From a bacterium (lineage in GTDB: Bacteria; Myxococcota; UBA727; JAUIJE01): 64,000 nucleotides of DNA. Shown piece after piece: positions 7,480 through 52,399 of this stretch. Location of the stretch: assembly GCA_030431455.1 (NCBI GenBank), contig JAUIJE010000013.1, forward strand, positions 124,001 to 188,000. Reading direction: 5' to 3'. Each line of letters opens with the position of its first letter. Positions within the stretch are counted from its first letter, which is position 1. The position numbers and the translations under genes are program-made. Under the pieces are notes generated by a model. That model saw only the letters and a program-made list of their open reading frames with translations, was not told the origin of the DNA and searched no databases.

Positions 7480-7492
7480 GCCGGGAGACGGC

Positions 7493-8326: not shown

Positions 8327-8333
8327 GGAGCCC

Positions 8334-9485: not shown

Positions 9486-9509
9486 ACCGCATGACGCGCC
9501 CAGACCCGC

Positions 9510-11171
9510 TCAGCGACGGGTGGCCTCGACCAGCACCACGTACTCGCCCCCCGGCCGCTTGGGCAACGTGCCTTGGCAGGTGGCGATGGACAGGGTGTGG
9601 GCGTCGCTCTGCATGATGTCCTTGAACCGCCACACGTCGGCGGGCAACACCACGTTCGACACAATGTAGTTGTACCGAACCTTGGCGTAGCGGCCCCCCG
9701 CGGCCTTCTGCAGCGACGGGTCCAGCACCTCAAACGCGTCCGGGGCGACGCCCCCCGCGCACACCTGGTCGGCGTAGCCGGCCAACGCCGCGTCGAGCTT
9801 GGGGTCCTGGGCGAACGGCAGCTTGCCCCCTTTTTGCCGCCGCCGGTTGAACGCGTTGAACAGCTTCTCCCGTTCCTTCTCGGGATTGAGCTTGCCCACC
9901 GGCTGGGCGTAGACAAAGTCGAACGCGTAGAGGCCCTTTTCGGCCGGAGCCACCCCCACCCCGACGTGGGTGGTGCGACGATCGAGCAACACCCGCTGCA
10001 CCGAGGGCGAGAGCAGGTCGTACCAGACCTGCTCCTCCACCGAGGTGAACACCCCCGCGAGGTGGCCCATGCGCCGGGTGGGAAAACCCGCCTGGGCCAT
10101 TTCTTCGGCCATGGCGTGGCCGGCCTGGGGTTTGCCGGTCTTCGCCGCGTGGGCGGCGAGACCATCGGCGCGGGTCTGGATGCCGGAATGTATCTGGAAC
10201 GCGGGCAGCCCCGCGTCGGTCCGCGCCTTCTGGTACAGCTCGATGAGCCGGGCCTTGACCGCCCCCTCCCCCGCGGGGTTTGGCGGGGGGGCGGCGATGA
10301 ACGCGTCGGGTGCATCCGGGGCCGGCCCCACGTACACCGGGAACATCGCCAGCGAGCGTTGCCACCGGTCGTCGTCGCTGTACACCGCGCGCTGGCGGCC
10401 AATGATCTCGACGTAATGGGCCCCGGGGGTCGCGGGCGCGGTGAAGCGCGCGGTGAACACGCCGTCCACCGCCTCGAGCGGGACGGACACGACCTGGCCC
10501 CCCTCGCGGTGAAGCAGCGCCAGGTCCTCGACCTCTTCTTGGAGGGTGCCTGTCACCGTGACCTCGGCCCCGGGCTCGACGCTGCGCGGAATGTCCCCGA
10601 GCACCACCGGCAACCCCGCGAACACCACCACCTGGGCGGTGCGGTCACCGGCCGCGGGGGCGCGGGCGATGCCGAACGCCACCGGCCCTTTCATGTCCTT
10701 GACCAGGGCCGCGTGGGCCGCGGCCTGCTGGTCGAGGTGGGTGTCGGCCCCGGGCCCGGTGAACACGTCGGCGCGCAGACCCACCGAGTGGGTCCCGAGC
10801 CCGAAGCGCCACAGCAGCCATTGTTGCAATGTCTCTGCAGGGAGCTGGTTGCGCTCGGCCACGGTCGCGGCCATGACCTGCGCGACGTGGTCGAGGTGGG
10901 GCAGGTAGGTGACCTGGGCCCGGCGCTCGGCCGGGAGCGCGTCGAGGAACGGTTGGTGAATCAGCTGGGGCGCCCCCGGGTGCGCCGCGTAGCTGGCCAC
11001 TTGGGTGGCCATCGCCGCGCTCGCTTGGGACGCGGGAATCTCCCGCACCGGTTCGGTGGTGGGGCGGTAGGCCGGCCCCGACGGGGTGCTCGCGCACCCG
11101 CCCCAGGCGGATGCCCCGACGAGCACGAGGAGGACAGAACAGACGCGGCGGGAGATGGTCAGACAGGTCAT
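9510..11171 (-). CDS. Lipoprotein with CAP-like (SCP/PR-1) C-terminal domain
   Basis: A 553-aa protein. ATG 11171 was chosen because it opens into a lipoprotein signal ending in lipobox AWGGC; the longer open frame upstream is on the shoulder of another gene. The first half is mainly beta-stranded with a stretch resembling an Ig-like ligand-binding module (AEVTVTGTLQEEVEDLALL). The second half has the order of a CAP domain: LIELYQKARTDAGLP, a paired helix containing GHAMAEEM, then SVEEQVWYDLLSPSVQRVLLDRRTTHVGVGV, matching the family's W-x-x-S-x-x-H-x-x-x-[IL]-L ... VGVG pattern but with the usual second His replaced (SPSVQ). No partner gene nearby; convergent with the exporter operon. Confidence 0.72.
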   Translation of the reverse strand: MTCLTISRRVCSVLLVLVGASAWGGCASTPSGPAYRPTTEPVREIPASQASAAMATQVASYAAHPGAPQLIHQPFLDALPAERRAQVTYLPHLDHVAQVMAATVAERNQLPAETLQQWLLWRFGLGTHSVGLRADVFTGPGADTHLDQQAAAHAALVKDMKGPVAFGIARAPAAGDRTAQVVVFAGLPVVLGDIPRSVEPGAEVTVTGTLQEEVEDLALLHREGGQVVSVPLEAVDGVFTARFTAPATPGAHYVEIIGRQRAVYSDDDRWQRSLAMFPVYVGPAPDAPDAFIAAPPPNPAGEGAVKARLIELYQKARTDAGLPAFQIHSGIQTRADGLAAHAAKTGKPQAGHAMAEEMAQAGFPTRRMGHLAGVFTSVEEQVWYDLLSPSVQRVLLDRRTTHVGVGVAPAEKGLYAFDFVYAQPVGKLNPEKEREKLFNAFNRRRQKGGKLPFAQDPKLDAALAGYADQVCAGGVAPDAFEVLDPSLQKAAGGRYAKVRYNYIVSNVVLPADVWRFKDIMQSDAHTLSIATCQGTLPKRPGGEYVVLVEATRR

Positions 11172-11231
11172 GACCGGTCGCTTTTCACCGTCGTGGGGCG
11201 GCCGCAACCAGGCCTGGGCTATCATGGCGCC

Positions 11232-11735
11232 ATGGACGGCCCTGCTCCGCCTGCGCCCCCGTCGACCGCGCTCACCGCGTTCGCCCGCGACGCCCCGGCC
11301 CCGGACCGCCGGCGCACCCTGGCCGAACACCACCGCCGCCGCCGCCGGGTGACCCGCTGGTACGGACTGGGCGTCGGCCCCGCCATCGCGTGCGCGGTCT
11401 GGTTGCTGGCGCGCTTCGGGGGGCTGCACCCCAAGGACTGGGCCGACCTGTTGTTGTGGGTGATGGTGCCCGCGCCGGTCCTGGCCGGGGTGGCGCTCGA
11501 GGTCCATCTCCGCCGCAGCCTGTCGCGCGCCCTCGGCCAAGCCGTGCCCGGACAGCTCATCGACGCGGGCCTGCAGGCGGTGGCCGAGCTGCGGAACCGT
11601 TACCCCGGCCCCCTGTCCGAACGCGCCGCCGCGGAGGAGCGGCTCTTCGCCGCCACCGTGCTCAGCCACCTGCCCGCGGCGGGGCCGGGGGCGGTCAACG
11701 ACGACGACGACCGCGACGGGCCGGCCGGCGGCTGA
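11232..11735 (+). CDS. Small hypothetical membrane protein
   Basis: A 167-aa protein with a Pro-rich, then Arg/His-rich cytoplasmic N-terminus (about 1-40), two transmembrane helices (about 43-62 and 70-90) and a helical C-terminus ending in a DDDDRD acidic patch. The TATCAT hexamer at 11220-11225 lies 6 bases before the ATG and there is no Shine-Dalgarno, so the mRNA could be leaderless. The 3' end overlaps the helicase gene on the other strand by 41 bases. Divergent from the CAP-like lipoprotein gene. Confidence 0.55.
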   Translation: MDGPAPPAPPSTALTAFARDAPAPDRRRTLAEHHRRRRRVTRWYGLGVGPAIACAVWLLARFGGLHPKDWADLLLWVMVPAPVLAGVALEVHLRRSLSRALGQAVPGQLIDAGLQAVAELRNRYPGPLSERAAAEERLFAATVLSHLPAAGPGAVNDDDDRDGPAGG

Positions 11736-14067
11736 AACGCCCGTCGTCGGTGGCGGCGAAGCCGAGGGCGCCCAAGACCTCGCCCACCTCGGCTTGGCTG
11801 GCGGCAAGCCGCGAACACCAGGACTCGTCGAGGACGAAGGGCCCGGTTCGGGCGGCTTTTTGGGCCAAGCCGGCGACCTTCTCCAGCGCGTCGATGCGGT
11901 ACCGCTTGCCCCCGATGGGAGCAAAGCCGAGCACCCAGCCCTCGTCCCCCCGCACCGCGTCGCGCCCCACCGAGGTCTGGGTCGGCGCCACCGGGACCGG
12001 CCCCACCGGCTGCTGGTGCCAAAGCTTGGCCACCGCCCAGCGCCACGCGAACGGCACCACCCCCGCGCGGTACCGCAGGCTCACGGTGCGCTGGCCGATG
12101 CGCACCCCGAGGCCGCGCAGCGCTCGCTTGTCGTCGGGGGTCAACGCCTGCAGCGCGGGCGACAGGTCGCGGCGGCCCGACACCCCGAACCGCTCCGCGA
12201 GCAAATACAACAGCGCGTTGACCCGGCCCCCGGACCGCTCGCGCTCGGCCGCGGGCAGCGCCCCGAACACCTCTTCGAGGCGCAGGTTGGTCACCGCCTG
12301 CAGCTTGTGCCGCACGTCCTCGGTGCGCTCGGCCAACAGGTCGTCCAGGGTGACCGCGACCTCCGGACCGTAGCGGCGCTTGCCCCGGGTGAGGCGGCCC
12401 ACCCGGGCGCCATCGAAGCACAATGTGTCTTGATCAAGCGTGAACCGGTCTACGTCGGCATCGAGCAACGCGTCCACCCGGGCGTGCATCCTCGACGACA
12501 ACGCCCGCCGGGCCAGGCGGAGGCGGTCCCGGTCGGCCCCGCCGTCGCTGGTCACGGTGAGCCCGTCGATGCGGGCCACCACTTGGCCCTCTATGCGGGC
12601 GGTGCCGTTTTCGTCCACCTCGAGCAGCCCGGACAGTTCGTCGTCTGTGCGCCGCACCGCCACCCGCTTGAGCTCATCCACAAACCGCGCGGTGAGCCGG
12701 TCGTGCAAGGCATCGCTCACCCGCTCTTCGACCTCCGCGGCCATCGCCTGGTACCGCGCGGGGTGAGCGGTCCAGTCCGCGCGGTGGGCGACATAGGCCC
12801 AGGTCCGCACGTCGCTGAGGCGCACGGTGAGCGCGTCGGTGTCGACGTCGACGTCGCCCAACCGGGACAGGGCCCGCTCGATCACCGCGTCGGGCACCGC
12901 CCCGCGGTCCCGCAGGTGGATGTACAGCTGCCGGCAAAACCGGGCGTGCCCGTCGTCGAGGTTGCGCCGGTAGTCGGGGACCTGACACACCGCCCAGAGC
13001 CGGCGCACGTCGGCTTCGCGCAGGCCCGGCCCCGCCACCTTGGGGTCTTGGGCCAGCCGTTCGAAGGTGAGCTGGTCCACCCCGCCCGCGGCCCGCCGGG
13101 CCCGGGCCATGGGGGGCGGCCGGCGCAGGCTATCCACCAATGTCTCGATGCTCGTGTAGTCGAGGTCGGTGTTGCGGTACCACACGAACGGCACCGGATC
13201 GAACGCGTGCTCCTCGATGGCGCGCACCACCTCGTCCGACAGCGGCGCGGCCTCGTCACAGGTGCCGAAGGTTCCGTCCCGCTGATTGCGGCCGGCCCGG
13301 CCCGCGACCTGGGCGAGCTCGGCCGCGGACAGCCCCCGGATGCGCTCCCCGTCAAACTTGCGGGTCCGGGCGAAGGCCACGTGCTGGATGTCGAGGTTGA
13401 GCCCCATGCCCACCGCGTCGGTGGCCACGAGCACGTCGACGCGCCCCGACTGGAACAGCTCCACTTGGGCGTTGCGCGCCCGCGGGGACAAGGCCCCGAG
13501 CACCACCGCCGCGCCCCCGCGCTTCTGGCGCACCTTCTCCGCCAGCCGGTACACCTCCTGGGCGGAGAACGCGATCACACAGCTGCGCGCGGGCAGCGAC
13601 GAGAGCGAGGCGTGGCCGAGATGGCGAAGCGCCGAGCGCCGGGGCCGGTGCTCGACCTGGGCGTGGGGCACGATGTCCGAGAGCACATCCTGCACGGTGT
13701 CCGCCCCGCAGAACATCGTCTCCCGCGTGCCCCGGGCCTGGAGCATGCGCGCGGTGAACACGTGGCCACGCTTTTTGTGCCCGCACAGTTGAATCTCGTC
13801 GACGCCGACAAAGGCCACCGGCCGATCGGGCATCGCCTCGGTGGTGCTCAACCAATAGTCGGGACGGGCGGGCACGATGCGCTCTTCCCCCGTCACCAAC
13901 GCCACGCGGTCGGGGCCCAGCCGGGCCACCAGGCGGTCGTAGTTTTCCCGGGCCAACAGCCGCAAGGGAAAGCCCATCACCCCGGTGGGGTGGGTGAGCA
14001 TGCGCGACATCGCGTGGTGGGTTTTCCCGGTGTTGGTGGGGCCCAACACCGCCGAGACCAATGTCAC
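11695..14067 (-). CDS. Suv3-type superfamily 2 RNA helicase
   Basis: A 790-aa helicase resembling mitochondrial/alphaproteobacterial SUPV3L1 (Suv3). Motif I is GPTNTGKT (9-16), the Suv3 form rather than the usual AxTGSGKT; motif II is DEIQ (90-93), again Suv3-specific. Later come SAQEVYRLAEKV, ATDAVGMGLNLDIQHV (motif V) and QVAGRAGR (motif VI). The C-terminal half is largely helical, includes the Suv3 C-terminal region, and ends in a very basic tail (RRGRRRR) likely to bind RNA. In mitochondria Suv3 unwinds structured RNA for a 3'-5' exonuclease; a degradosome-like role here is inferred. It is downstream of, and co-directional with, the TPR and YidD-like genes. Confidence 0.88.
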   Translation of the reverse strand: MTLVSAVLGPTNTGKTHHAMSRMLTHPTGVMGFPLRLLARENYDRLVARLGPDRVALVTGEERIVPARPDYWLSTTEAMPDRPVAFVGVDEIQLCGHKKRGHVFTARMLQARGTRETMFCGADTVQDVLSDIVPHAQVEHRPRRSALRHLGHASLSSLPARSCVIAFSAQEVYRLAEKVRQKRGGAAVVLGALSPRARNAQVELFQSGRVDVLVATDAVGMGLNLDIQHVAFARTRKFDGERIRGLSAAELAQVAGRAGRNQRDGTFGTCDEAAPLSDEVVRAIEEHAFDPVPFVWYRNTDLDYTSIETLVDSLRRPPPMARARRAAGGVDQLTFERLAQDPKVAGPGLREADVRRLWAVCQVPDYRRNLDDGHARFCRQLYIHLRDRGAVPDAVIERALSRLGDVDVDTDALTVRLSDVRTWAYVAHRADWTAHPARYQAMAAEVEERVSDALHDRLTARFVDELKRVAVRRTDDELSGLLEVDENGTARIEGQVVARIDGLTVTSDGGADRDRLRLARRALSSRMHARVDALLDADVDRFTLDQDTLCFDGARVGRLTRGKRRYGPEVAVTLDDLLAERTEDVRHKLQAVTNLRLEEVFGALPAAERERSGGRVNALLYLLAERFGVSGRRDLSPALQALTPDDKRALRGLGVRIGQRTVSLRYRAGVVPFAWRWAVAKLWHQQPVGPVPVAPTQTSVGRDAVRGDEGWVLGFAPIGGKRYRIDALEKVAGLAQKAARTGPFVLDESWCSRLAASQAEVGEVLGALGFAATDDGRFSRRPARRGRRRR

Positions 14068-32189: not shown

Positions 32190-34517
32190 TTGACCCTCAT
32201 CGGTCACGCCGTCTCCGGCGCGGCGATCTACACCGCGCTGCGGCCGTGGGGGCACCAAAAGAGCCTGTTCGGTCTGCCGCAGGGCTGGGCTTTCTGGCTC
32301 GCGGTGTTGGTGCCGTTGCTGCCCGACCTGGACGCGTTCTCCGCGATTTGGTGGGACCCCGACCACGTCGTCGCCCACCGCGGCCTGAGCCACTCGCTGC
32401 TCGTCGGCGCCGCCCTCTCGCTCGTCGGGGTGCTCGGGCTGCAAGCCACCGGCCGGATGAACGGCGGCCGCCGCACGTTCCTGCTCGCGACGGGGTTCTT
32501 TTCGCTGCTGTTCGCCAGCCACGGCTGCACCGACGCGATGACCGACGGGGGCAAGGGGGTGATGCTGGGTTGGCCGGTGTCGGACGCGCGCACGTTCTTG
32601 CCCTGGCGACCGCTCCCCGCCGCGCCCCTGTCCACCACGCTGGTGCGCACCCAGTGGACGGAGAAACAACGCCGGGCCATGGCGCGGTACCGCAAGCGGG
32701 TTCTCGACGACGACACCACCCACAACCTGCTCAAGCGCGCCGCGGTCTCCCTCGACGACGACCCCACCGAGGCGCGCCGCCTCGCGCTGGTGGGCATCGC
32801 GCTCACCGAGGTCCTGGTCTTCGCCCCGCTGTTCTTCATCGGCTGGTGGCGCCGACGACGGCGCCCCCCCGAGCCCCCCCCCATCGAATACAAACGCCTG
32901 GCCACCATCACCGCGTGGGTGGTGCCCAAACCCAACCGCACGGTGGGCGCGGTGTTGGCGTCGGCGTGCGGGGTGGTGTTCGTCATCGGCCTGGTGTTTT
33001 CGCGGGCTCCCCACCTCGGGCTCGAGCACAGTCGCATTGTGTTGGTGGACGGTCACTTCACCCCCGCGTTCATCATTCGCCCCAAGACCGACACCGTCCC
33101 CGCCCCCTATGCCCTGTTGCTCCACGACTGGCGCAGCGGGCACGAGGCGATGCTGCCCTTCGCCCGCATGCTCGGGCGCAACGGGCTCGAGGTGGTGAGC
33201 GTGGACTGGCTTGGCCACTCCGCCCACCGCACCCCCCTCGACCTCTCGTGTCCTCCCGACCGCGCGCCGCCGTGCCGCCTCGACGAGGAGCGCGTGCTGC
33301 GCCGGCAGCTGGACAACATCCTCGCCGCCTTGCAGAACGTGCGCCGGTTCTCCGGGCGCCCGATCATTCTCATCGGCCACGAGCTGGGCGCCCGGGCCGC
33401 GCTGCGGGCCCAGCACCCCGCGGTCACCGCCCGGGTGGCCTTGGCCACCGACATCGACGAGCGCCGCTTCTCGGGCAACGCCCTCATCCTCGCCCCGCGC
33501 CACGCCCGGCGTGACCTCCCCGCCCGGATCAAGGTGGGCCGGATCGTGGGCGACACCCGGGCGGGCAAGGCCTACGCGGTGCATTTTCATTCCCTGTCTT
33601 CCTCCGGCTTTCTGCACGACGAGGACATCAACCGCCGGGTCCTGGACTGGGTCCAGACCACCACCGGCGAGCGGCTCGCCCCCCCCGGCGCCCCCGATGG
33701 GGACGACGAGCCGGACCTCCGCCCCTTGGTCGGCCGCAGCCTGCTCGCGGTGCTTTTCGGTTTGTTGTTCGCCCTCGCTTGTCTGCACTTTTTGCTCTCG
33801 CTGTTCACCGAGGCGGTCCCCCGCGTGCTCGACCGCCGGGCCAACCTCGCCCGGCCGCTGGTGGCGTTCTTTTGTTGCCTGGTGGGCCTGCTCGCCAGCG
33901 CGCGCCATTTCGGGGCCTGGGCCGACAGCGGCCCGATCTGGCTGTGGGCCGAAGAGGGCCTGCTCATTCCCCCCGGGCTGTTCACGTTTTTGCTCTGGGG
34001 CGCTATCCCCTATTTGACGGCTCTGCTCCTCAAGACCCGCGGGGACCCGGAGGGACGGTCGGTGCTCATCCCGCGCCCCCTGCCCTTGCTCGCGGTGCTC
34101 CTCGCCGTGACCCTCCACGGGGTGCTGGTCCTCGGGGTCGCCGATGGCGCGCTCGCGCCGGTGTCGGTGCCGGTGTTTCGCGTGGGGCGGTGGGCGCTGT
34201 TCACCGCGATGCTCTTCCCTTTTGCCCGGGTGGTGCAGGACGTCGGGCCGCAGGCCTTGCGGCCGGGACCGTGGGCGACGCGCCTGTTGTTGCGCTGCGG
34301 GCTGTGGGCGGGGGCGGCCGCGCTGCTCGCGTACGGCCGCAGCACCGTCGACGAACGCACCCTGGCATTGGTCGGGGCCGCGGTCGTCGGCGAAGCGTTC
34401 GGGGCCGTGGTCCAGCGGCACACCGGCTCCCGGTTCGCGGCGGCGCTGACCGTGGCCACCATTTGTGCGGCCGCGTTTGCCGCGCTCTACCCGATGCTGG
34501 TCGCGACCTCGGCGTGA
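32190..34517 (+). CDS. YdjM-type membrane metallohydrolase fused to an alpha/beta hydrolase and membrane domain
   Basis: A 775-aa multi-domain membrane protein with start TTG 32190 (AGGA upstream; no ATG available). The N-terminal 190 residues match the YdjM/LexA-binding inner-membrane hydrolase pattern: GHAVSGAAIY, LLPDLDAF, HRGLSHSLL (the H-R-G-x-[ST]-H metal motif) and a later SHGCTDAMTDG. After a transmembrane helix, residues about 270-490 resemble an alpha/beta hydrolase: YALLLHDWRSGHEAM, then IILIGHELGARAAL, where the nucleophile elbow G-x-S-x-G is replaced by G-H-E-L-G, so activity is doubtful. The C-terminal 270 residues have about seven transmembrane helices. Unusual fusion. Confidence 0.75.
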   Translation: MTLIGHAVSGAAIYTALRPWGHQKSLFGLPQGWAFWLAVLVPLLPDLDAFSAIWWDPDHVVAHRGLSHSLLVGAALSLVGVLGLQATGRMNGGRRTFLLATGFFSLLFASHGCTDAMTDGGKGVMLGWPVSDARTFLPWRPLPAAPLSTTLVRTQWTEKQRRAMARYRKRVLDDDTTHNLLKRAAVSLDDDPTEARRLALVGIALTEVLVFAPLFFIGWWRRRRRPPEPPPIEYKRLATITAWVVPKPNRTVGAVLASACGVVFVIGLVFSRAPHLGLEHSRIVLVDGHFTPAFIIRPKTDTVPAPYALLLHDWRSGHEAMLPFARMLGRNGLEVVSVDWLGHSAHRTPLDLSCPPDRAPPCRLDEERVLRRQLDNILAALQNVRRFSGRPIILIGHELGARAALRAQHPAVTARVALATDIDERRFSGNALILAPRHARRDLPARIKVGRIVGDTRAGKAYAVHFHSLSSSGFLHDEDINRRVLDWVQTTTGERLAPPGAPDGDDEPDLRPLVGRSLLAVLFGLLFALACLHFLLSLFTEAVPRVLDRRANLARPLVAFFCCLVGLLASARHFGAWADSGPIWLWAEEGLLIPPGLFTFLLWGAIPYLTALLLKTRGDPEGRSVLIPRPLPLLAVLLAVTLHGVLVLGVADGALAPVSVPVFRVGRWALFTAMLFPFARVVQDVGPQALRPGPWATRLLLRCGLWAGAAALLAYGRSTVDERTLALVGAAVVGEAFGAVVQRHTGSRFAAALTVATICAAAFAALYPMLVATSA

Positions 34518-34659
34518 GCGACGGGGGCTGGCCCCGCAGATCACGACATGCCTGTCACGGTTTCGACCGCCCAACGCCCAACGCACCGCCCGCATCGGCG
34601 CCCGCGCGCGGTTTGCGATTTGGTGCGGTGGTTGCATTCGGGTGCGGCGGAGGAATGAC

Positions 34660-35460
34660 ATGATCAAGAATGAAGCGATGGGGTGGCGGTCGTTGGTGTT
34701 GGGTTTGACGACGGTGGGGGCGCTTTGGAGCGTGGCCTGCACCGAACGGGTGGGGTCGGAGGACATCAACATCGGGGACGGCGACGGCGACGGCGACGGT
34801 GACGGGGACGGCGACGGCGACGGCGACGGCGCGGTGTACGCGGTGTTCTCGGCCACCCGCGCGGCCGGCCAAAGCGACACCACGCTGTCCGCCGCGCTCA
34901 AGGTCGGTGGCCCCCAGTCCAATGTGTATGTGGAGATCGAGGGCGACGATCAACTGTACGGGCTGCACAACGGCACCCGCATCGAGCTTCCCCCGGTGGC
35001 GAACATCATCGACCCCGACCTCATCACCTACGGCGACGACTTCGCGGACATCGCCCCCGGCGACAGCTTGGCGCTGGTTTTTCAGCGTGGCGAATCGGTC
35101 TACGACGAGACCACGGTCACGATGCCCGCCGCGCCCACCCTGGCCAGCCCGGCCGACGGCGCGACCTTCCGCATCGACGAGGACTTGGTGCTGACCTGGG
35201 CCGCCGAAGCCGGGACCAACATCGTGGCCACCCTCGACGGCACCTGCATCGAGGAATACATCACCGACGCCGCGGCCGACGAGGGCACGGTGACCATCCC
35301 CGCGGGCACCTTGCAAGAGGAGAGCGAGGCCCCCGGCCAGGCCTGCGACGTGCTCGTCGAGCTGCGCCGCACCACGCCCGGCAGCGCCGATCCCGTGTTC
35401 CAAGGCGGGTCCATCCGGGCCGAGGCCGAGGCCACCCTGACCTTGACCCGCGCGCCGTAG
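34660..35460 (+). CDS. Lipoprotein with (Gly-Asp)n linker
   Basis: A 266-aa protein. ATG 34660 has GGAGGAA upstream and opens into a signal peptide with lipobox WSVAC. Residues about 38-56 are nine consecutive Gly-Asp pairs, presumably a flexible acidic spacer. The globular part is all-beta, with segments such as APTLASPADGATFRIDEDLVLTWAAE that look like one or two Ig-like or fibronectin-type folds and two Cys that could form a disulfide. Nine bases separate it from the MYXO-CTERM protein downstream, and the two may be co-expressed. Confidence 0.75.
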   Translation: MIKNEAMGWRSLVLGLTTVGALWSVACTERVGSEDINIGDGDGDGDGDGDGDGDGDGAVYAVFSATRAAGQSDTTLSAALKVGGPQSNVYVEIEGDDQLYGLHNGTRIELPPVANIIDPDLITYGDDFADIAPGDSLALVFQRGESVYDETTVTMPAAPTLASPADGATFRIDEDLVLTWAAEAGTNIVATLDGTCIEEYITDAAADEGTVTIPAGTLQEESEAPGQACDVLVELRRTTPGSADPVFQGGSIRAEAEATLTLTRAP

Positions 35461-44003: not shown

Positions 44004-45065
44004 TCAGCCGCCGCAGCCGTTCTGGCTTGTCACAGTTTGCCACACCACCGGCACGCCGGTGCCGGGCACATCCTGGAATGCCAATGGCCAGCTTTGACAC
44101 CACCACGACCCACATTGGCTTTGCCGCTGGACGTGGGTGTGCGGCCCCGTCGACCAACCCGTGCCCCCGCTGTGCCCCACGAGCTGCCCGCGCACGACCC
44201 CATCCCCCAATTGCACGTCGGCGCGGTTGAGGTGCAGGTAGAGCGTGGCGCTGCCATCGCTGTGGCCGAGCACCACGTAGTTCACGTGGTTGGCGCATTC
44301 GGCGCCGCCGCCGTTGTAGCAGGGGTGGCCAGGGGTGATGTCGGTCTTGGCCATGAGCACGACGCCGTGGTCCATGGCCAGCAACGGGGTGTTCAGCGGC
44401 AGGCCAAAGTCGAACGCGTAGTTGGCAATGCCATTGTGCGAGTAGGCGCTGCTGTTGCCCTGGGTGACGGTGGTGCTGGTGCCGCAGGTCAGGGGGAGCA
44501 AAAATCCCGCGGTGGGTTCGGGCGGTGTCTCGTCGGTGCAGGTGGCGTAGACCGCGGAGATGTAGCCGGTGACGGCGGCGGTCTCGATCTGCCACCACCA
44601 GGTCTCGCCCGAGATGGCCTCGCCCTCTGTGCCGCTGAGCGCGGCGACGGTTTGGCCCTCCACGAGGGTGCCCACCGGCGCGCCGGAGGTGTCCGGCGTC
44701 GGGCGAACATTCAGTGGATAGCCGGCGGTGCCGGTCACCTGCACGAAGGGACAGGCGGGCGCGGGTTCGGGGGCGGGCTCCGGTTCGGGGGCGGGCTCCG
44801 GCTCCGGCGCTGGGGAAGGTTGTGGCTCCGGCTCGGAGGAAGGTTGTGGCTCCGGCTCGGGGGAAGGTTGCGGCTCCGGCTCGGGCGTGAGCTCGGGCTC
44901 GGGCAGGACCTCAGGCCCGGGACCGGCGTCGACGGGCGGCGCACCGGCGTCGAACCCCCACGCGATCGGCCCGTCCGGGCTGTCGCCGGTGTGGTCGGGG
45001 CCGCAAGCGAGCACGAGGAAGACGAAGGCGGCGGTGGCGGCGGAGAGCAGGAAGGGCGTTTTCAT
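44004..45065 (-). CDS. Lipoprotein with SH3b and M23 (LytM) peptidase domains
   Basis: A 353-aa protein with lipobox LVLAC (Cys21), then a Pro/Glu linker in which PEPEPQPS-type units recur (about 50-105). An SH3b-like domain (about 110-165: [29 protein letters not shown]) precedes an M23 peptidase domain: [12 protein letters not shown] (metal His and Asp), [16 protein letters not shown] and the H-x-H motif in GPHTHVQ. The active-site set looks complete. It would bind and cut peptidoglycan cross-links or act in divisome control. A promoter with direct repeats lies upstream, and it is divergent from the iron operon. Confidence 0.87.
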
Positions 45066-45120: not shown

Positions 45121-45231
45121 TCGGGCGGGGGCCGGCCCTGGGGGCGGCTTTCCGCGGGAGACCGCCCCCCTGACGGTGCCGGCGTGCCGCGGACGGATTC
45201 GCTTGCCGCTGTCCATGTGGTGTGGCAGGAA

Positions 45232-45262
45232 GATAATGTTGATTCTCATTCTCATAATCAAC
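45232..45262 (+). promoter_or_regulatory. Fur box candidate
   Basis: GATAATG is followed by GTTGATT-N11-AATCAAC, and the interior TCTCATTCTCAT gives the repeated NAT-A/T-AT-like hexamers of ferric-uptake-regulator sites. It is strongly AT-rich against the background and ends 43 bases before the first gene of the DUF4856-imelysin-HTTM operon. Iron-repressed expression is predicted. Confidence 0.72.
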
Positions 45263-45304
45263 AAAAACGGAAGTGACCGTTCGCCTGAGGTTGGAGTTCG
45301 CACC

Positions 45305-46783
45305 ATGCAACGCGTTTTGTTCTCACTTTGGTTGGCCGCGCTCCCTGCCGGCGCCCTGCTGATCACCGCCTGCCCCACGGAGCCTGGAGACGGAGATGGA
45401 GATGGCGACGGAGATGGCGACGGAGATGGAGACGGAGACGGAGACGGAGACGGAGATCCAGGCACCTACGCGTTCACCAGCAAGTTCGGCACCGGCAGCA
45501 GTGTGTCCTACGGCGGCCAGGCGTCGCGCCACCTTCTCATCGAGGAGATGAAGGGGTTCATCGGCACATTGGACGAAAACAGTGCCATTGCGCTTGCCCA
45601 CGAGGACATCATGGCGTCGTTGGTGTTCTTCTATGACTACGCCAACGCGGGGGGCACGGGCGAAGACACCCTGACGGTGACGCTTCCCGGCGACGGCTCC
45701 CTCGAGGAGTCCACCTTCGGGGAGGTGGGCGGAACCACCAGCTTGAAAGAGAAGATGCCGGGCATCAACATCGCCTGGGACGCCGGCGTGCTCGGCTACA
45801 AGGACGGCACCATGACCCCCGACGAGGTCGTGCTCGACATGTTCGACCAGTACGCCACCCTGGTGAACGGCCGCGCCCTCGACAGCGCCAACTTGCCCCA
45901 GGACCCGTTCGGCAATGACATTGCCAAGGCCTACGTCAGCCCCGCCGGCGTCGATCACCGCGAGCTGATCCAAAAGTTCCTCGGGGTGGTCCCGTACTCC
46001 CAGGCCACGGACAAGTACATCGACGACGGCGCAGATGGTTCGGGATTGCCCAGCGACAACACCGCGCTGGTCGAGGACAAGCCCTACACCGCCCTCGAGC
46101 ACGTGTGGGACGAAGCCTTCGGCTACTTCGGCGCCGCCCGCGACTACGATCTGTACACCGACGACGAAATCGCGGGCGCGGCCGACACCGAGCGGGGCCT
46201 CGGCTACTACGACACCGACGGCGATGGCCAGATCAGCCTCTACACCGAGGTGAACAAAGGCCACGCGGTCAACGCGGCCAAACGCGACCGGGGGGTGACC
46301 GGCCTGGACCTCACCGCGCAAGCCTTCGACGCGTTCATGGCCGGGCGCACGTTGATCGCTGAGAACGAGGCCCTGGACAGCGCCCAAATGGCCACCCTCG
46401 AGGGCCACCGTGACCAAGCGGTGCAAGCGTGGGAACACGCCATCGCCGCCACCGTCATCCACTACATCAACGACACCGTGGGGGACATGGACCGCTTCGA
46501 CAATCCCTGCGACACCCCCGACGAGGAGGACTGCTATCGCTTCCTCGACCACGCCAAACACTGGTCGGAGATGAAGGGCTTTGCCCTGATTCTGCAGTTC
46601 AACCCGCACTCCCCGTTGACCACCGCCGACCTCACCGACCTCTACGCCGCGATGGGGGACGCGCCGGTGTTGCCCGGCGCCGACGCCCAGACCGTCGCCG
46701 ACCACCGCGCGGGCCTGCTCGCCGCCCGCGACGCCCTCGGCACCGCCGAGGGCTTTTCCCCCGCCCACGTGGAAGCTTGGTAG
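45305..46783 (+). CDS. DUF4856-like lipoprotein of the iron operon
   Basis: A 492-aa lipoprotein (lipobox LITAC, Cys23) with 12 consecutive Gly-Asp pairs right after the lipidation site. The body is helical: SGQ-like opening (GGQASRHLLIEEMKGFI), a conserved-looking YTALEHVWDEAFGYFGAARDY block and LDHAKHWSEMKGFALILQFNPHSPL. These blocks match what I remember of DUF4856 proteins, which in Bacteroidetes lie beside imelysin and HTTM genes. Start ATG 45305, TTGGAG upstream. Probably an outer-membrane iron- or heme-related binding protein; ligand unproven. Confidence 0.78.
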   Translation: MQRVLFSLWLAALPAGALLITACPTEPGDGDGDGDGDGDGDGDGDGDGDGDPGTYAFTSKFGTGSSVSYGGQASRHLLIEEMKGFIGTLDENSAIALAHEDIMASLVFFYDYANAGGTGEDTLTVTLPGDGSLEESTFGEVGGTTSLKEKMPGINIAWDAGVLGYKDGTMTPDEVVLDMFDQYATLVNGRALDSANLPQDPFGNDIAKAYVSPAGVDHRELIQKFLGVVPYSQATDKYIDDGADGSGLPSDNTALVEDKPYTALEHVWDEAFGYFGAARDYDLYTDDEIAGAADTERGLGYYDTDGDGQISLYTEVNKGHAVNAAKRDRGVTGLDLTAQAFDAFMAGRTLIAENEALDSAQMATLEGHRDQAVQAWEHAIAATVIHYINDTVGDMDRFDNPCDTPDEEDCYRFLDHAKHWSEMKGFALILQFNPHSPLTTADLTDLYAAMGDAPVLPGADAQTVADHRAGLLAARDALGTAEGFSPAHVEAW

Positions 46784-46792
46784 GAGGCCACG

Positions 46793-47971
46793 ATGAAATT
46801 CTCCTTGCTCCCCCTGGTCGCGATGGTTGGTGTCACCGCCGCTTGTCCCAAAAGCACCGGCCAAGAGCCTGAGCCCGAGGTCGCGTTCAGCCGATCGCAA
46901 CTGCTCGAGAACCTCGCCGATGGGGTGTTCGTGCCCACGTACCAGGGGTTCGTCGACGCCAGCGGCGTGCTCGTCGACCGCGCCCGCACCTATGCCGCCG
47001 CCACCGGGGACGCCCGAGCCGCCGCCCGCGCGGACGCGCAGACCGCGTTCCTCGATGCCCACGCGGTGTGGCAACGCGCAGACCTCTACCAAGTCGGCCC
47101 CGCGGCGCCGTCCTACCGCCCCGGGGGCCAGAACATCCGCGATGAAATCTATTCGTTCCACGACGGCGTCAACCCCTGCGCGGTGGACCAACAGCTCGTG
47201 GCCAACGAGTTCGGCGCCGCCGGCTACTTCGACCAGCGGCTCATCCCCACCAAGGGCCTGGACGCCCTCGAGTACGTGCTGTTTTACGACGGGGCCGACA
47301 ACCAATGTCCGCCGCCCGCCACCATCAACACCAGCGGCGCGTGGGCCGCGCTGACCCCGGCCGAGCTCGGCACCCGACGAGAACGCTATGCCGAAGCATT
47401 GAGCCAGCATCTGCACACCCAGGCCCAACGGTTGGTGCAGGCCTGGTCCCCGGAGGGCGACGATTTCCGCAAGGAGTTCCTCGCCCGCGGCGAGACCTTC
47501 AGCTCAGAACGCGACGCCCTCGATGCGGCGTTCGCCGCGCTCTACTACCTGGAGCTGTTCACCAAAGACCGCAAGTTGTCTGTGCCCATCGGGCTGCATG
47601 TGGATTGTGCCGCCGCCCCCTGCCCCGAGTTCGCGGAGTCCTTGTGGTCGGCGGCGTCCACCCGCCACATCGAACAAAACCTCATCGCGTTCCGCGACGC
47701 ATTTTCAGGCAACGGAGGCTACGGTTGGTCGGACGCGCTCGTCGCCGAGGGCGCCGAGGAGCTGGCCACCCGCATGACCAGCCACCTCGACGCGGCCATC
47801 GCGTTGGTGAACGCCGAGACCCGCTCGGTGGATGAGCTGGTGCGCTCCGACCCAGAGCAGGCGCAACGCATCTACGAGGCGGTGAAGGCGGTGACCGACG
47901 ATCTCAAGAGCCAGTTCATCACCGTGCTCAACCTGAGCGTTCCCGATGAAGGCGCCGGGGACAACGACTGA
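46793..47971 (+). CDS. Imelysin-like (M75) lipoprotein
   Basis: A 392-aa protein (AGGAGG, 5 bases before ATG 46793) with lipobox TAAC. The imelysin fold is suggested by long helices and the opening FVPTYQGFVDAS, RADAQTAFLDAHAVWQRAD, and the motif GLDALEYVLF. In classical imelysin peptidases the corresponding G-x-H-x-x-E motif binds metal; here His is replaced by Asp (GLDALE), as in many imelysin-like binding proteins. Such proteins are iron-regulated and often act as iron or heme chaperones. Second gene of the operon. Confidence 0.83.
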   Translation: MKFSLLPLVAMVGVTAACPKSTGQEPEPEVAFSRSQLLENLADGVFVPTYQGFVDASGVLVDRARTYAAATGDARAAARADAQTAFLDAHAVWQRADLYQVGPAAPSYRPGGQNIRDEIYSFHDGVNPCAVDQQLVANEFGAAGYFDQRLIPTKGLDALEYVLFYDGADNQCPPPATINTSGAWAALTPAELGTRRERYAEALSQHLHTQAQRLVQAWSPEGDDFRKEFLARGETFSSERDALDAAFAALYYLELFTKDRKLSVPIGLHVDCAAAPCPEFAESLWSAASTRHIEQNLIAFRDAFSGNGGYGWSDALVAEGAEELATRMTSHLDAAIALVNAETRSVDELVRSDPEQAQRIYEAVKAVTDDLKSQFITVLNLSVPDEGAGDND

Positions 47972-47978
47972 GACCACG

Positions 47979-49337
47979 ATGAACGCGGTGTCTGCTCAAC
48001 CCCTGGGCCGTGACCGGCGGTGGCGTCGGTGGGCGCAGCGCGAGGTGTCGCTCGCCTCGCTGGCCGCGTTCCGCGTCCTGTTCGGGGCGGTGCTGCTCGT
48101 TGGCACCCTGCGTTTTCTCGGCCGCGGCTGGATCGAAAAGCAGTACGTCGAGCCCACGTTCTTTTTCAAGTACTGGGGCTTTTCCTTCATCGAGGTGTGG
48201 AGCCCGACCGGTCTCTACCTCCACTTTTCCGCAATGGCATTGTGCGCGGCCCTGATCTGCCTGGGGCTGTTCTACCGCGTGGCCACCGTCGGGTTCACCC
48301 TGCTGTTCGCCTACGCCGAGCTGATGGACGTCACCAACTACCTCAACCACTACATGCTGGTGATTTGGCTCTGTTTGTTGCTGTGCGTGAGCCCGGCGCA
48401 CGGCATGTGGTCGCTCGACGCCTGGCGCGCGCCGCGGCTGCGCCGCCACACCGTCCCCCTGTTCCTGCTTGTCACCTTTCGCGCCCAGGTCGCGGTGGTC
48501 TATCTGTACGCCGCCTGGGCCAAGGTCGGCGCCGATTGGCTGCTGCATGGGCAGCCCCTCGACATCTGGCTCTCGTCCCGCTCCGACATGTGGCTGGTGG
48601 GTCCGTTGTTCACGTTGCCGGCGACGCCGCTGGTGATGTCTTGGGCGGGTTTTTTGTACGACGCGACCATCGTCCTCTGGTTGAGCATCCCGCGCACCCG
48701 CCCGGTGGCGTACCTCGTCGTGCTTGGTTTTCATGGGTTCACCGGGGCGCTGTTCGACATCGGCATGTTCCCGGGCATCATGAGCGTGGCCACGTTGCTT
48801 TTCTTTTCCCCGTCGTGGCCGCTCCGGTTTGTCCCCCACCGCGCCCCGCCGACGACAAACCCGCGGCGGCCCGCTTGGCTCGCCCCGCTGTTGATGGGGT
48901 TTTTGCTCGTGCAGGTGCTTCTGCCCGCGCGGCACGTGCTCTACGGCGGCGACGTGCTCTGGCACGAACAGGGCATGCGGTACGCGTGGAAGGTCATGGT
49001 GCGCGAAAAGGCGGGCAGCGTGACCTATCGCGTCGTCGCCCGCGACGGCCACCGCACCTGGCATGTCGCGCCCACCGACTACCTCACCTGGCGACAGGCC
49101 AACGAGATGAGCGGCCAGCCCGACCTGATTCTCCAGCTCGGCCAACACATCGCCTGGGATTTTGCCCGCCGCGGGCGCGGCGACGTCGCGGTCTACGTCG
49201 ACGCGCTGGTGTCGCTCAATGGCCGCGCGGCCGCGCGCCTCATCGATCCTGGGGTCGATCTCACCACGGTGACCGATGGCATCGCACGCCACGCCTGGAT
49301 TCTGCCCGCCCCGGCCAGTCCCCCGCTCGGCGGCTGA
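47979..49337 (+). CDS. HTTM domain membrane protein
   Basis: A 452-aa protein with about nine transmembrane helices. The pattern [23 protein letters not shown]...[21 protein letters not shown] matches the horizontally transferred transmembrane (HTTM / vitamin-K-dependent gamma-carboxylase) family, as does [17 protein letters not shown] and [12 protein letters not shown]. The C-terminal 140 residues are soluble and periplasmic. HTTM genes accompany DUF4856 and imelysin genes in other phyla; function unknown, perhaps covalent modification or transport of iron complexes. Start ATG 47979, 7 bases after the imelysin stop. Confidence 0.85.
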
Positions 49338-49393: not shown

Positions 49394-50992
49394 ATGCGGT
49401 TTTGGTGGCTTTTGGTGGTGATGATCGGCGCGGCGTCCACGGGTTGCCCGGGGAGCAGCACGGACGCGGGCCCCGAGCCCGAGGATGATGCAGGCGACGA
49501 ATGCCCCATCGGGAGCGAAGCTTGCCCCTGCACCCAGGGCGGCGCCTGTGACGAAGGGCTGACCTGTCTGAGCAACTTCTGCGTCGACGCCAGCGGCGAC
49601 GGCGATGGAGACGGCGATGGGGATGGAGACGGCGATGGGGATGGGGACGGAGACGGGGATGGGGACGGCGACGGGGATGGGGACGGAGATGGCGACGGGG
49701 ACGGCGACGGGGATGGAGACGGAGATGGCGACGGCGACGGAGACGGAGACGGCGACGGAGACGGCGACGGAGATGGAGACGGAGACGGGGATGGAGACGG
49801 CGACGGTGATGGGGATGGAGACGGAGACGGCGACGGAGACGGCGATGGAGACGGCGATGGGGACGGCGACGGGGACCTGTATTTCGATTGCAGCACGGTG
49901 CCGGAGGCCCCCGTCACCCAGACCGTGACCGGCGCGCGGGGCTATCACGGCCTGCTCATCGACGAGGACGGCTGGATGATCGGAGCGGACGATGGCGGCA
50001 ACCTCATGCGCGCCACCCGCACCGGCGACGTGCAGTTGTTCGTGCCCGGCGCCGGCCGGGGCCAACAGATGGCGTGGCTGTCGTCGGACAGCTTCGCGTG
50101 GGCCGCGGAGAACGATGCGTTGCAGCGCATGCACGCGTCCGGCGGAACCGAACTCATCACCGCCGGGCTCAATGCGTATGCAGTGGTCAAAGGCCGCGAC
50201 GGTTTGCTTTACACCATCCAGGACTACACCGCGCCGGTCTCCGACGTGGTCCGGGTGGACCCCGCCACCGGCGAGTCCGAGGTGTGGCTCGACTGGGACG
50301 TCGACGGGCCGGGGGACGGCGACCCGCACAGCCTCGCGTTCAACCGCGAAAACAACCGGATGTTCATCGGGACCATCTACAGCGGGACGATCTTCGTCGT
50401 GGAGCTCGACAACCAGCTCAACCCCTTGGGTCCGCCGCAGCCGTTCGCCACCGACGTGGGCGGTTGGCATGACGCCATCGCCGTCGACCTCTGCGAGAAC
50501 CTCTACGTGCCCGACTTCTTCTCCTCGACGCTCTTCCGCGTCGACCGGCACGGCCAAGCGGTCGAATACTGGACGGGCGGGTTCGACGCCTACACCCACG
50601 GCCTGCTGTGGGGCACCGGCACGTTCGGGTGGAGCGGTACCGCACTGTACGCTCCCCAGCCCTACAACGACCACAGCGTCATCGAGATCGACGTCGGCGT
50701 GCCCCCGGCGTCCGCCCCCCGCATCGCCATCAACCTCCCCGGCCCGCCCGGCACCGCCGACGCCGGCCCGTCGCCGGACGCGGGCGACCCCCTCGATGGC
50801 GGGTCCCTCGATCAGTGGATCTGTCCCGCGGCCTGGTACAACAGCGGCGGGTCCTGCGATTGCGGATGCGGCATCCGCGACGAAGACTGCGACGGCCCCG
50901 AGCCGGTCACCTGCGCGTATGTCTGGTGCAACCCGCCGGGCGACGGCCAGGGCGGGACGGTCGATCCCACCAACTCCGGGCTCTGCCTGTAG
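49394..50992 (+). CDS. Propeller-like lipoprotein with a 94-residue (Gly-Asp)47 linker
   Basis: A 532-aa protein with lipobox ASTGC, an early Cys-rich segment ([22 protein letters not shown]) and 47 uninterrupted Gly-Asp pairs (about residues 68-161). The globular half (about 170-470) has repeated turns such as [58 protein letters not shown] that resemble SMP-30/NHL-type propeller blades. A Cys-rich tail ([14 protein letters not shown]) closes it. Surface-exposed sensor or lactonase-like protein is possible, but no catalytic residues can be assigned. Confidence 0.75.
49595..49876. repeat. Hexamer minisatellite encoding (Gly-Asp)47
   Basis: Bases 49595-49876 (282 bp, a multiple of 6) follow the GGN-GAY pattern without interruption. 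The third positions vary (GGC/GGA/GGG/GGT, GAC/GAT), so the tract is not a fresh slippage product. Confidence 0.95.
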
Positions 50993-51115: not shown

Positions 51116-52399
51116 ATGTCGAAGCATCTCCTTGCCCTCACCTCGTTTTCCCTCGGGTTGCTGGTCTGCCTCGGCTGCCCCCCGCCGGTGGCGTGCAGCG
51201 ATGACGCGACCTGCTTCGAAGGCGAAGCCTGCGTCGATGGATTCTGCGCGCCCAGCCCTGGCGACGGCGACGGAGACGGAGACGGAGATGGGGACGGCGG
51301 CGATGGCGACGGGGACGGCGATGGCGACGGCGACTGCCCCGCGGGCGCCCAGGACTGCGACGGCGACGGCATCTGTGACTACCTCAACCAAAACTCGAAC
51401 CACTGCGGCAGCTGCGGGAATGTATGCGCCACCGGCGTGTGCTCGGGCGGCACCTGCGTCGCCGGCGCCCTCCACGAGAACTTGTCGTACCCGGTGACCA
51501 TCCACCACGAGGGTGGCTACGTGTATTTCGCCGAGGAGGGCAACTCGGGCAGCGAGTCCGGCGCGGTCAAACGGTTCCCGACCTCCAACCCCACCCAAAT
51601 CGAGACGTTGGCCGCGGGCATGGAGTCACCGCGCGGCATCGCCATCGACAACGACGAGCTGTTCTTCATGGAGATGCGCTACCAGGTCGACGACGCTCTT
51701 TGGCACACCAAGAAGGCGGGCCCCCCGACCGAGGCCTCCCGCATCGAAGACGGTTGGGACCTCGAGGGCAGCGGTTCGTCGTTCTTGTACGGGCTCGCCG
51801 CCGGCGAGGGCTATGTCTTCTTCATGGACTACAGCGCGCTGCACCGGCGCGGGCTGCAGTCGGCGGTGATCGAGGAGGTCGACACCGGCGGCTCCTTCGC
51901 CAAGGGCCTGATGTACGACGACGGGTACCTGTTCTTTGTCCAGGCGGGCGTGGTCAAGCGTGTGGACGCCAACTTCGGCGCGCTGCCGACCCCCGAGCCG
52001 ATCGGGCTGGCCAACCTCCCCGACGGGCACACCGGCGTCTACAGCTGGACCCAAGACGAGGATTGGCTGTACTTCGGGTCCAACCCGAGCGCCCGCGAGG
52101 GTGGCATCACCCGGGTCCGCAAAGACGGCGCGATGACCGAGTTCATGGTGCCCGAGGTCAACCCGCTCGACACGTCCTCGGAGGACTGGGCCAAGGCCAG
52201 CGCCCTCGCCTCCGATGGTACGCACCTGTACTACGCGATCACGACGTCGGACGCGCGCATCTACCGCGTCGCGCTCGCGGCCGGGGCCGAGCCTGAGCTC
52301 ATCGCCGAGACCAACAACCCCACCGGCCTCACCGTCGATGATACGTTCGTGTACTGGACGTCCTCCGCCAGCGGTTCGATCTGGCGGTTGGCCAAATAG
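51116..52399 (+). CDS. Propeller-like lipoprotein with interrupted (Gly-Asp)12 linker
   Basis: A 427-aa protein with lipobox CLGC, Cys-rich segment (ACSDDATCFEGEACVDGFC), twelve Gly-Asp pairs with one extra Gly, and another Cys-rich module (CGSCGNVCATGVCSGGTC). The remainder has blade-like repeats: GGYVYFAEEGNSG, DDELFFMEMRY, GEGYVFFMDYS, DEDWLYFGSNPS, DGTHLYYAITTSD, DDTFVYWTSSASGSIWRL. It resembles the protein at 53185 more than the one at 49394. Probable secreted binding propeller. Confidence 0.78.
   Translation: MSKHLLALTSFSLGLLVCLGCPPPVACSDDATCFEGEACVDGFCAPSPGDGDGDGDGDGDGGDGDGDGDGDGDCPAGAQDCDGDGICDYLNQNSNHCGSCGNVCATGVCSGGTCVAGALHENLSYPVTIHHEGGYVYFAEEGNSGSESGAVKRFPTSNPTQIETLAAGMESPRGIAIDNDELFFMEMRYQVDDALWHTKKAGPPTEASRIEDGWDLEGSGSSFLYGLAAGEGYVFFMDYSALHRRGLQSAVIEEVDTGGSFAKGLMYDDGYLFFVQAGVVKRVDANFGALPTPEPIGLANLPDGHTGVYSWTQDEDWLYFGSNPSAREGGITRVRKDGAMTEFMVPEVNPLDTSSEDWAKASALASDGTHLYYAITTSDARIYRVALAAGAEPELIAETNNPTGLTVDDTFVYWTSSASGSIWRLAK

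What the first reader, a model, noticed from the sequence alone, without database searches (positions are those of the whole stretch)
45232..49337. Putative iron-regulated DUF4856-imelysin-HTTM operon in a Myxococcota-like genome
Seen: three genes with 7-9 bp gaps behind an AT-rich Fur-box-like site (GATAATG plus GTTGATT-N11-AATCAAC). Two products are lipoproteins, the third a multi-spanning HTTM protein. Known: imelysin-like proteins are iron-regulated, and I recall DUF4856/imelysin/HTTM gene sets from Bacteroidetes. Inference: an outer-membrane iron or heme acquisition module with an unexplained HTTM partner, here carrying a (GD)12 linker. This is the best candidate for a little-described system in the window.
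Basis: partly seen in the sequence, partly recalled or inferred. Interest (0 to 1): 0.72.

Follow-up and report, generated by a model that had tools for sequence, protein, structure and literature searches.

The report
Iron-regulated operon with vitamin-K-carboxylase homologue
A bacterium carries an iron-starvation operon in which two surface-type lipoproteins are made next to a relative of the human vitamin-K blood-clotting enzyme with its catalytic residues intact; the same gene set recurs in two bacterial phyla, which suggests bacteria may use vitamin-K chemistry to prepare iron-capturing proteins.

Summary
In detail: three tightly spaced genes (9- and 7-bp gaps) lie behind one Fur-box-like palindrome, the only such site in the 64-kb window. 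Profiles confirm DUF4856, imelysin and HTTM. The 'unexplained HTTM partner' is more than HTTM: it has both the HTTM and lumenal domains of vitamin K-dependent gamma-carboxylase (VKGC/GGCX), with the catalytic base (K218), Glu-pocket N159/H160 and quinone-pocket residues intact. It lacks GGCX's C-terminal part and its C99-C450 disulfide.

The pairing is not local. In 195 genomes of the window's phylum, 69 of 88 VKGC genes directly follow an imelysin. In 248 Bacteroidota genomes, 48 of 66 do, and 35 of 39 DUF4856 genes head a DUF4856-imelysin-VKGC set, usually followed by a TonB-dependent receptor. The window copy lacks that receptor. Published RNA-seq in Riemerella lists a TonB receptor/VKGC/imelysin/hypothetical set as Fur- and iron-regulated, without comment on the carboxylase.

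Every partner imelysin (70/70) ends exactly in D-x-D; imelysin-1 never does. This mark also occurs without VKGC.

Best reading: a Fur-repressed iron-acquisition module whose VKGC-type enzyme, probably menaquinol-driven, modifies a partner lipoprotein. Iron control and enzyme competence are well supported; reaction and substrate are inferred. New variant of a known kind.

The parts
45232..45262 (.). Fur-box-like operator: GATAATG plus palindrome GTTGATT-N11-AATCAAC; core TGATTCTCATTCTCA at 45240-45254, 50 nt upstream of the first ATG
   Evidence: Only match to TGATAATNATTATCA with <=3 mismatches in the window, 0.04 expected; equivalent or better boxes upstream of related operons, e.g. TGAGAATGATTCTCA in L021 and L071
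45305..46783 (+). DUF4856 lipoprotein, 492 aa, lipobox Cys23, (GD)12 linker
   Evidence: PF16148 E=5e-13; gene order conserved in Myxococcota and Bacteroidota; all-helical confident model without a PDB fold match
46793..47971 (+). Imelysin of the IPPA/'imelysin-2' class, lipoprotein (Cys18), GLDALE variant of the GxHxxE motif, C-terminus ...GAGDND
   Evidence: PF09375 E=7e-30; profile match to IPPA 3pf0; fold match to 4ecg, 3pf0 and 7xrx; C-terminal D-x-D in 70/70 complete proteins of the class
47979..49337 (+). VKGC-like integral membrane enzyme (HTTM + VKGC lumenal domain), 452 aa; N123/H124/K182/W187/F251/F259/F264 = GGCX N159/H160/K218/W223/F286/F294/F299
   Evidence: PF05090 E=3e-75, PF22777 E=5e-43; human GGCX phmmer E=5.5e-33; active-site conservation

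Best explanation
A Fur-repressed iron-acquisition operon. When iron is short, the cell makes two outer-membrane-type lipoproteins (DUF4856 and an IPPA-class imelysin) and an inner-membrane VKGC-type enzyme. In relatives these are coupled to a TonB-dependent receptor that carries the captured iron species inward; the receptor for this copy must lie elsewhere or be missing. The VKGC-type enzyme most likely uses menaquinol and O2 (base = K182) to make a strong base on the periplasmic side and modify an acidic side chain of a partner lipoprotein in transit, most simply carboxylating Glu (or Asp) to give a better Fe3+ ligand. Shown here: gene content, order and conservation, the Fur-type operator, the intact quinol/Glu catalytic core, a menaquinone-pathway gene (menD) in the genome, and an imelysin-linked subclass of the enzyme with its own conserved pocket changes. 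Inferred: that it acts on a partner protein, which protein, and that the product is a carboxylated residue.
For: Domains of all three proteins. GGCX homology and residues read against the cryo-EM active site in PMC12589487: N159, H160, K218, W223, F286, F294 and F299 identical in 62/62 imelysin-linked VKGCs. Adjacency to imelysin 69/88 in the window's phylum and 48/66 in Bacteroidota, DUF4856 triads 35/39, genome co-occurrence Fisher p=9e-35 (genomes are related, so this p overstates independence). TonB receptor as next gene in most loci. Fur boxes at many linked operons, none scoring 12/14 or more at the stand-alone VKGCs. Published Fur- and iron-regulated RAYM_09779-09794 set: TonB receptor, VKGC, imelysin, hypothetical (PMC5609570). 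Linked VKGCs need only 2 label changes on the tree against 14.1 shuffled and share N158L, N290T, M401V. A second VKGC operon of the same genome (imelysin-DHOR-imelysin-VKGC) also has a Fur-like box. MenD over its cut-off and a VKOR homologue present.
Against: Residues that hold the Glu backbone in GGCX are changed (N158 to L, R436 to E/Q), as are Y395 (M here), K217 and the C99-C450 disulfide; the C-terminal part of GGCX, with much of the propeptide-binding and arch region, is absent. So substrate recognition must differ and carboxylation cannot be assumed. No Glu was found that is conserved only where VKGC is present. In a few loci a fatty-acid-hydroxylase-type enzyme takes the slot (L021, L023, L105) and L104 has neither. 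The window copy has no TonB receptor in the 64 kb. Expression evidence comes from another phylum, and correspondence of RAYM_09794 to DUF4856 is assumed from position.
Confidence: 0.5

Rival explanations
1. The VKGC-type protein is a menaquinol oxidase/epoxidase that works without a peptide substrate, for example supplying redox chemistry (Fe2+/Fe3+, O2 consumption) for iron handling.
For: Quinone pocket and catalytic base are the best conserved parts, while Glu-backbone residues and the C-terminal substrate-binding part are altered or missing. Fits my recollection that a Leptospira homologue was reported as adapted to a new function (not checked here).
Against: N159 and H160, which hold the Glu side chain in GGCX, are invariant in 62/62; the lumenal domain is kept; strict pairing with a secreted lipoprotein suggests a macromolecular partner.
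Confidence: 0.2
2. The enzyme modifies a small molecule or lipid (for example a metallophore or its lipid anchor) imported or displayed by the lipoprotein/TonB receptor pair, not the proteins themselves.
For: The slot can be taken by a fatty-acid-hydroxylase-family enzyme (L021, L023, L105), another membrane O2-using enzyme; the pocket is changed relative to GGCX.
Against: No biosynthesis genes for such a molecule recur next to the operon in the neighbour clustering; hydroxylase replacement is rare.
Confidence: 0.15
3. Iron-regulated operon whose cargo is not free iron: the TonB receptor and lipoproteins import another ligand (heme, another metal, a glycan-like nutrient) and the Fur control is only circumstantial.
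Against: Imelysin operons are repeatedly Fur- or iron-controlled (PMC3143127, PMC13066512, PMC5609570).
Confidence: 0.15

Closest known systems
Proteobacterial imelysin operon (PA4370-PA4373; here Azospirillum brasilense cytochrome c peroxidase-imelysin-DHOR-imelysin-DUF1513, L110)
   Same: Fur/iron-linked imelysins; the second imelysin is of the same IPPA class and in Azospirillum also ends in D-x-D
   Different: Has a di-haem oxidoreductase and imelysin-1, no VKGC, no DUF4856, no adjacent TonB receptor in the stretch seen
Riemerella anatipestifer RAYM_09779-09794
   Same: TonB receptor, 'vitamin K-dependent gamma-carboxylase', imelysin lipoprotein and a hypothetical protein, regulated by Fur and iron (PMC5609570)
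   Different: Keeps the TonB receptor; whether the hypothetical is DUF4856 was not checked; the carboxylase is listed but not discussed
Human gamma-glutamyl carboxylase GGCX
   Same: HTTM + lumenal domain; K218, N159, H160, W223, F286, F294, F299
   Different: 452 versus 758 residues, no C99-C450 disulfide, N158L, K217A, Y395M, M401V, R436E; no known propeptide-type substrate
EfeUOB ferrous-iron transporter
   Same: Contains an imelysin-fold component; EfeO and EfeM structures are weaker fold matches to the window imelysin
   Different: No EfeU permease or EfeB peroxidase in the operon
Stand-alone bacterial VKGC (e.g. between ribF and serS in Bacteroidota, L089-L093; Paracoccus albus plasmid, L109)
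   Same: Same fold family; catalytic core residues kept in the stand-alone set examined
   Different: No imelysin neighbour, no Fur-like box, N290 and M401 mostly as in human GGCX

Membership tests
Vitamin K-dependent gamma-carboxylase (VKGC) superfamily | HTTM and VKGC lumenal domains over curated cut-offs | tested here: met
   PF05090 253.7 bits (cut-off 27.7), PF22777 147.1 bits (cut-off 27.7)
Vitamin K-dependent gamma-carboxylase (VKGC) superfamily | Catalytic base K218, Glu-side-chain residues N159/H160, quinone pocket F286/F294/F299/W223 | tested here: met
   All identical in the window protein and in 62/62 imelysin-linked homologues (sites from PMC12589487)
GGCX-equivalent propeptide-directed carboxylase | C99-C450 disulfide, K217, R436, Y395 and the C-terminal propeptide-binding/arch region | tested here: not met
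   C99=F, C450=H, K217=A, R436=E, Y395=M; protein ends near GGCX residue 480. Not filed as a GGCX equivalent
GGCX-equivalent propeptide-directed carboxylase | Glu to Gla conversion coupled to vitamin K epoxidation | not testable with these tools
   Needs biochemistry
Imelysin-like, IPPA (PA4372-type) family | M75/imelysin profile and two-bundle fold | tested here: met
   PF09375 E=7e-30; Foldseek to 4ecg, 3pf0, 7xrx, prob 1.00
Imelysin-like, IPPA (PA4372-type) family | GxHxxE motif with the His replaced (GxxxxE) | tested here: met
   GLDALE, residues 155-160 (definition PMC3143127)
DUF4856 (PF16148) | Profile match over the gathering score | tested here: met
   49.2 bits against 22.3, over residues 207-280 only; aligns full length with relatives
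EfeUOB system | EfeU permease and EfeB peroxidase genes present | tested here: not met
   Operon holds only DUF4856, imelysin and VKGC genes
Fur regulon | Fur box upstream | tested here: met
   45240-45254, unique in the window, 0.04 expected
Fur regulon | Fur binding and iron response in this organism | not testable with these tools
   Only a Bacteroidota relative has data (PMC5609570)

The most novel reading that the evidence does not exclude
A bacterial, iron-regulated vitamin-K-dependent protein modification: the VKGC-type enzyme carboxylates (or otherwise oxidatively modifies) acidic residues of a lipoprotein, possibly the universally conserved C-terminal D-x-D of the imelysin partner, to make a high-affinity iron-capture site coupled to a TonB receptor.
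Probability: 0.22. Interest if true: 0.9.

Novelty: new variant of a known kind. Interest (0 to 1): 0.64.

Why it matters
The function of bacterial homologues of the vitamin-K carboxylase is, as far as I could find, unexplained. A tight, phylum-spanning, Fur-linked pairing with one imelysin class gives a concrete substrate shortlist (imelysin, DUF4856, TonB receptor), a physiological condition (iron limitation) and an expected cofactor (menaquinol). That makes two open questions testable together: what IPPA-type imelysins do, and what bacterial VKGCs modify.

Tried and rejected
Heme module: nothing specific found. EfeUOB-like system: no EfeU or EfeB. (GD)12 linker as a system feature: rejected, such linkers recur in this genome's putative lipoproteins. 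DUF4856 as a hidden imelysin relative: no meaningful profile match (probability 15%) and no PDB fold match. VKGC-specific Glu in imelysin as substrate signature: none found; the set without VKGC is small (10) and keeps the same residues. C-terminal D-x-D as a VKGC-only mark: rejected, it also occurs in IPPA 3pf0, Azospirillum and DHOR-type imelysin-2 without VKGC. Futalosine menaquinone route: MqnA/D family absent. Literature searches for imelysin with DUF4856/HTTM, and for bacterial gamma-carboxylase with Leptospira, found no description. One script failed because it read an alignment file as the window and was rerun; the Fur scan does not include the window itself, which was tested.
Full report
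OBSERVATION. The three genes are real: 45305-46783, 46793-47971 and 47979-49337 on the + strand with gaps of 9 and 7 bp. The palindrome GTTGATT-N11-AATCAAC sits at 45238-45262 behind GATAATG; its core TGATTCTCATTCTCA is the only site in the 64-kb window within three mismatches of TGATAATNATTATCA, with 0.04 expected from shuffles. It lies in a locally AT-rich stretch (GC 0.495 for 45200-45304 against 0.688 for the window), 50 nt before the first ATG.

WHAT THE PROTEINS ARE. Pfam places protein 1 in DUF4856, protein 2 in imelysin/M75 and protein 3 in HTTM, and in addition in the lumenal domain of vitamin K-dependent gamma-carboxylase (PF22777, E=5e-43). phmmer against PDB sequences gives human GGCX at 5.5e-33, with both domains aligned. 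Read against the GGCX cryo-EM active site (PMC12589487), the catalytic base K218 is K182 here, the Glu-side-chain residues N159/H160 are N123/H124, and the quinone-pocket residues W223, F286, F294 and F299 are kept; all are identical in 62 of 62 imelysin-linked homologues. What GGCX uses to hold its protein substrate is altered or gone: N158L, K217A, Y395M, R436E, no C99-C450 disulfide, and nothing beyond about residue 480. The core chemistry therefore looks possible, while the substrate must be recognised differently.

CONSERVATION OF THE SET. In the 195 genomes searched of the window's phylum, 88 VKGC genes were found and 69 lie directly downstream of an imelysin on the same strand; many of the rest are on contigs without a held imelysin or are second, stand-alone copies. 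In 248 Bacteroidota genomes the figure is 48 of 66, and 35 of 39 DUF4856 genes head a DUF4856-imelysin-VKGC set. A gene-order map of about 90 loci shows a TonB-dependent receptor as the usual next gene. Variations: imelysin-DHOR-imelysin-VKGC(-TonB receptor) in Mucilaginibacter, in Persicobacter and in a second operon of the window's own genome; a DUF5122 repeat-propeller lipoprotein, identified by Pfam in L044 and by similar sequence in others, upstream in several myxobacterial loci; and a fatty-acid-hydroxylase-family enzyme in the VKGC slot in L021 and L105, or downstream of the receptor in L023. The window copy has no TonB receptor anywhere in the 64 kb. Imelysin-linked VKGCs cluster on the tree (2 label changes against 14.1 in shuffles) and share N158L, N290T and M401V, whereas stand-alone copies mostly keep the human N290 and M401. 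That points to one shared substrate type within the module.

REGULATION. Related operons carry Fur-like boxes, two of them perfect (TGAGAATGATTCTCA), while the stand-alone VKGCs have none scoring 12 of 14 or better; most Bacteroidota operons do not match this proteobacterial consensus above chance, and the Fur motif proposed for Riemerella is indeed different (PMC5609570). In Riemerella anatipestifer a TonB receptor, a 'vitamin K-dependent gamma-carboxylase', an imelysin lipoprotein and a hypothetical protein (RAYM_09779-09794) are listed as Fur- and iron-regulated (PMC5609570). In the passages I read, the paper does not discuss the carboxylase.

THE C-TERMINAL MARK. All 70 complete imelysins of the VKGC-partner class end exactly in D-x-D (DND 34, DGD 26, DTD 5, DAD 3, DSD 2), against 0 of 9 imelysin-1 and 3 true background cases among about 1,200 other frames of 200 aa or more (a fourth listed frame, in L067, is probably the missing imelysin-2 of that operon). 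The solved Psychrobacter IPPA (3pf0) ends in STDGD, where PMC3143127 reports residues 384-389 as disordered, and an Azospirillum homologue ends in ELDGD. The predicted model leaves the tail disordered (pLDDT under 50 for 390-392). The mark is thus a hallmark of this imelysin class, wider than VKGC, and I found no mention of it. It may be a metal-ligand or docking tail; it is one candidate site for modification, but its presence without VKGC argues against VKGC being needed for its function.

MECHANISM. Best supported: Fur releases the operon under iron limitation; DUF4856 and imelysin lipoproteins go to the outer membrane (in Bacteroidota DUF4856 starts with acidic residues after the lipobox that resemble the surface-export signal known from that phylum; surface display here is inferred); the VKGC-type enzyme modifies a partner with menaquinol-derived base chemistry. 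The genome has MenD over its cut-off and a VKOR homologue. Steps shown: gene set, operator, catalytic core, cofactor pathway gene. Steps inferred: substrate, product, iron as ligand. Rivals: a peptide-independent quinol epoxidase role; modification of a small molecule or lipid, favoured by the occasional hydroxylase replacement; or a non-iron cargo.

KNOWN OR NEW. Imelysin iron operons and VKGC enzymes are each known, and the gene set has appeared in one expression table. Its conservation, the intact catalytic core, the linked enzyme subclass and the D-x-D hallmark do not appear described in the papers I could search (open-access PMC only; subscription papers were not available). I rate it a new variant of a known kind, with a substantial upside if protein modification is shown.

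Noticed in passing
window 34450-35457, 49394-50992, 51116-52399; L027 8615-10408; L028 5782-6978: Several putative lipoproteins carry long (GD)n linkers (n = 6 to 47). The largest, (GD)47 at 49394-50992, is the gene directly downstream of the operon. The linker seems a habit of this lineage, perhaps an acidic tether prone to repeat slippage.
   Followed up: partly
L028 (G000:C20:95000-112000) 8011-13087, - strand: Second VKGC operon of the same genome: imelysin-1, di-haem oxidoreductase (DHOR), imelysin-2, VKGC, with a Fur-like box (TGAGAATAATAATCA) and imelysin-2 ending DSDAD.
   Followed up: partly
L027 (G000:C16:707000-724000) 7201-8601: Third, stand-alone VKGC, close to prepilin-like genes and convergent with a (GD)44 lipoprotein; no imelysin and no Fur box nearby.
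   Followed up: partly
L089-L093: Stand-alone VKGC genes of Bacteroidota lie in a conserved ribF-VKGC-serS context (gene names by eye), unrelated to iron; their role is unknown.
   Followed up: no
L021 9950-10924; L023 12470-13405; L105 3409-4404: A fatty-acid-hydroxylase-family membrane enzyme appears in place of VKGC in a few imelysin operons: possible non-orthologous exchange of O2-using membrane enzymes.
   Followed up: partly
window 44007-45065 (-): Divergent lipoprotein-like protein with M23 peptidase and SH3 domains shares the upstream region of the operon.
   Followed up: no
window 45305-46783: DUF4856 gives a confident all-helical model (pLDDT 82) with no significant match among solved structures; possibly an undescribed fold.
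   Followed up: partly
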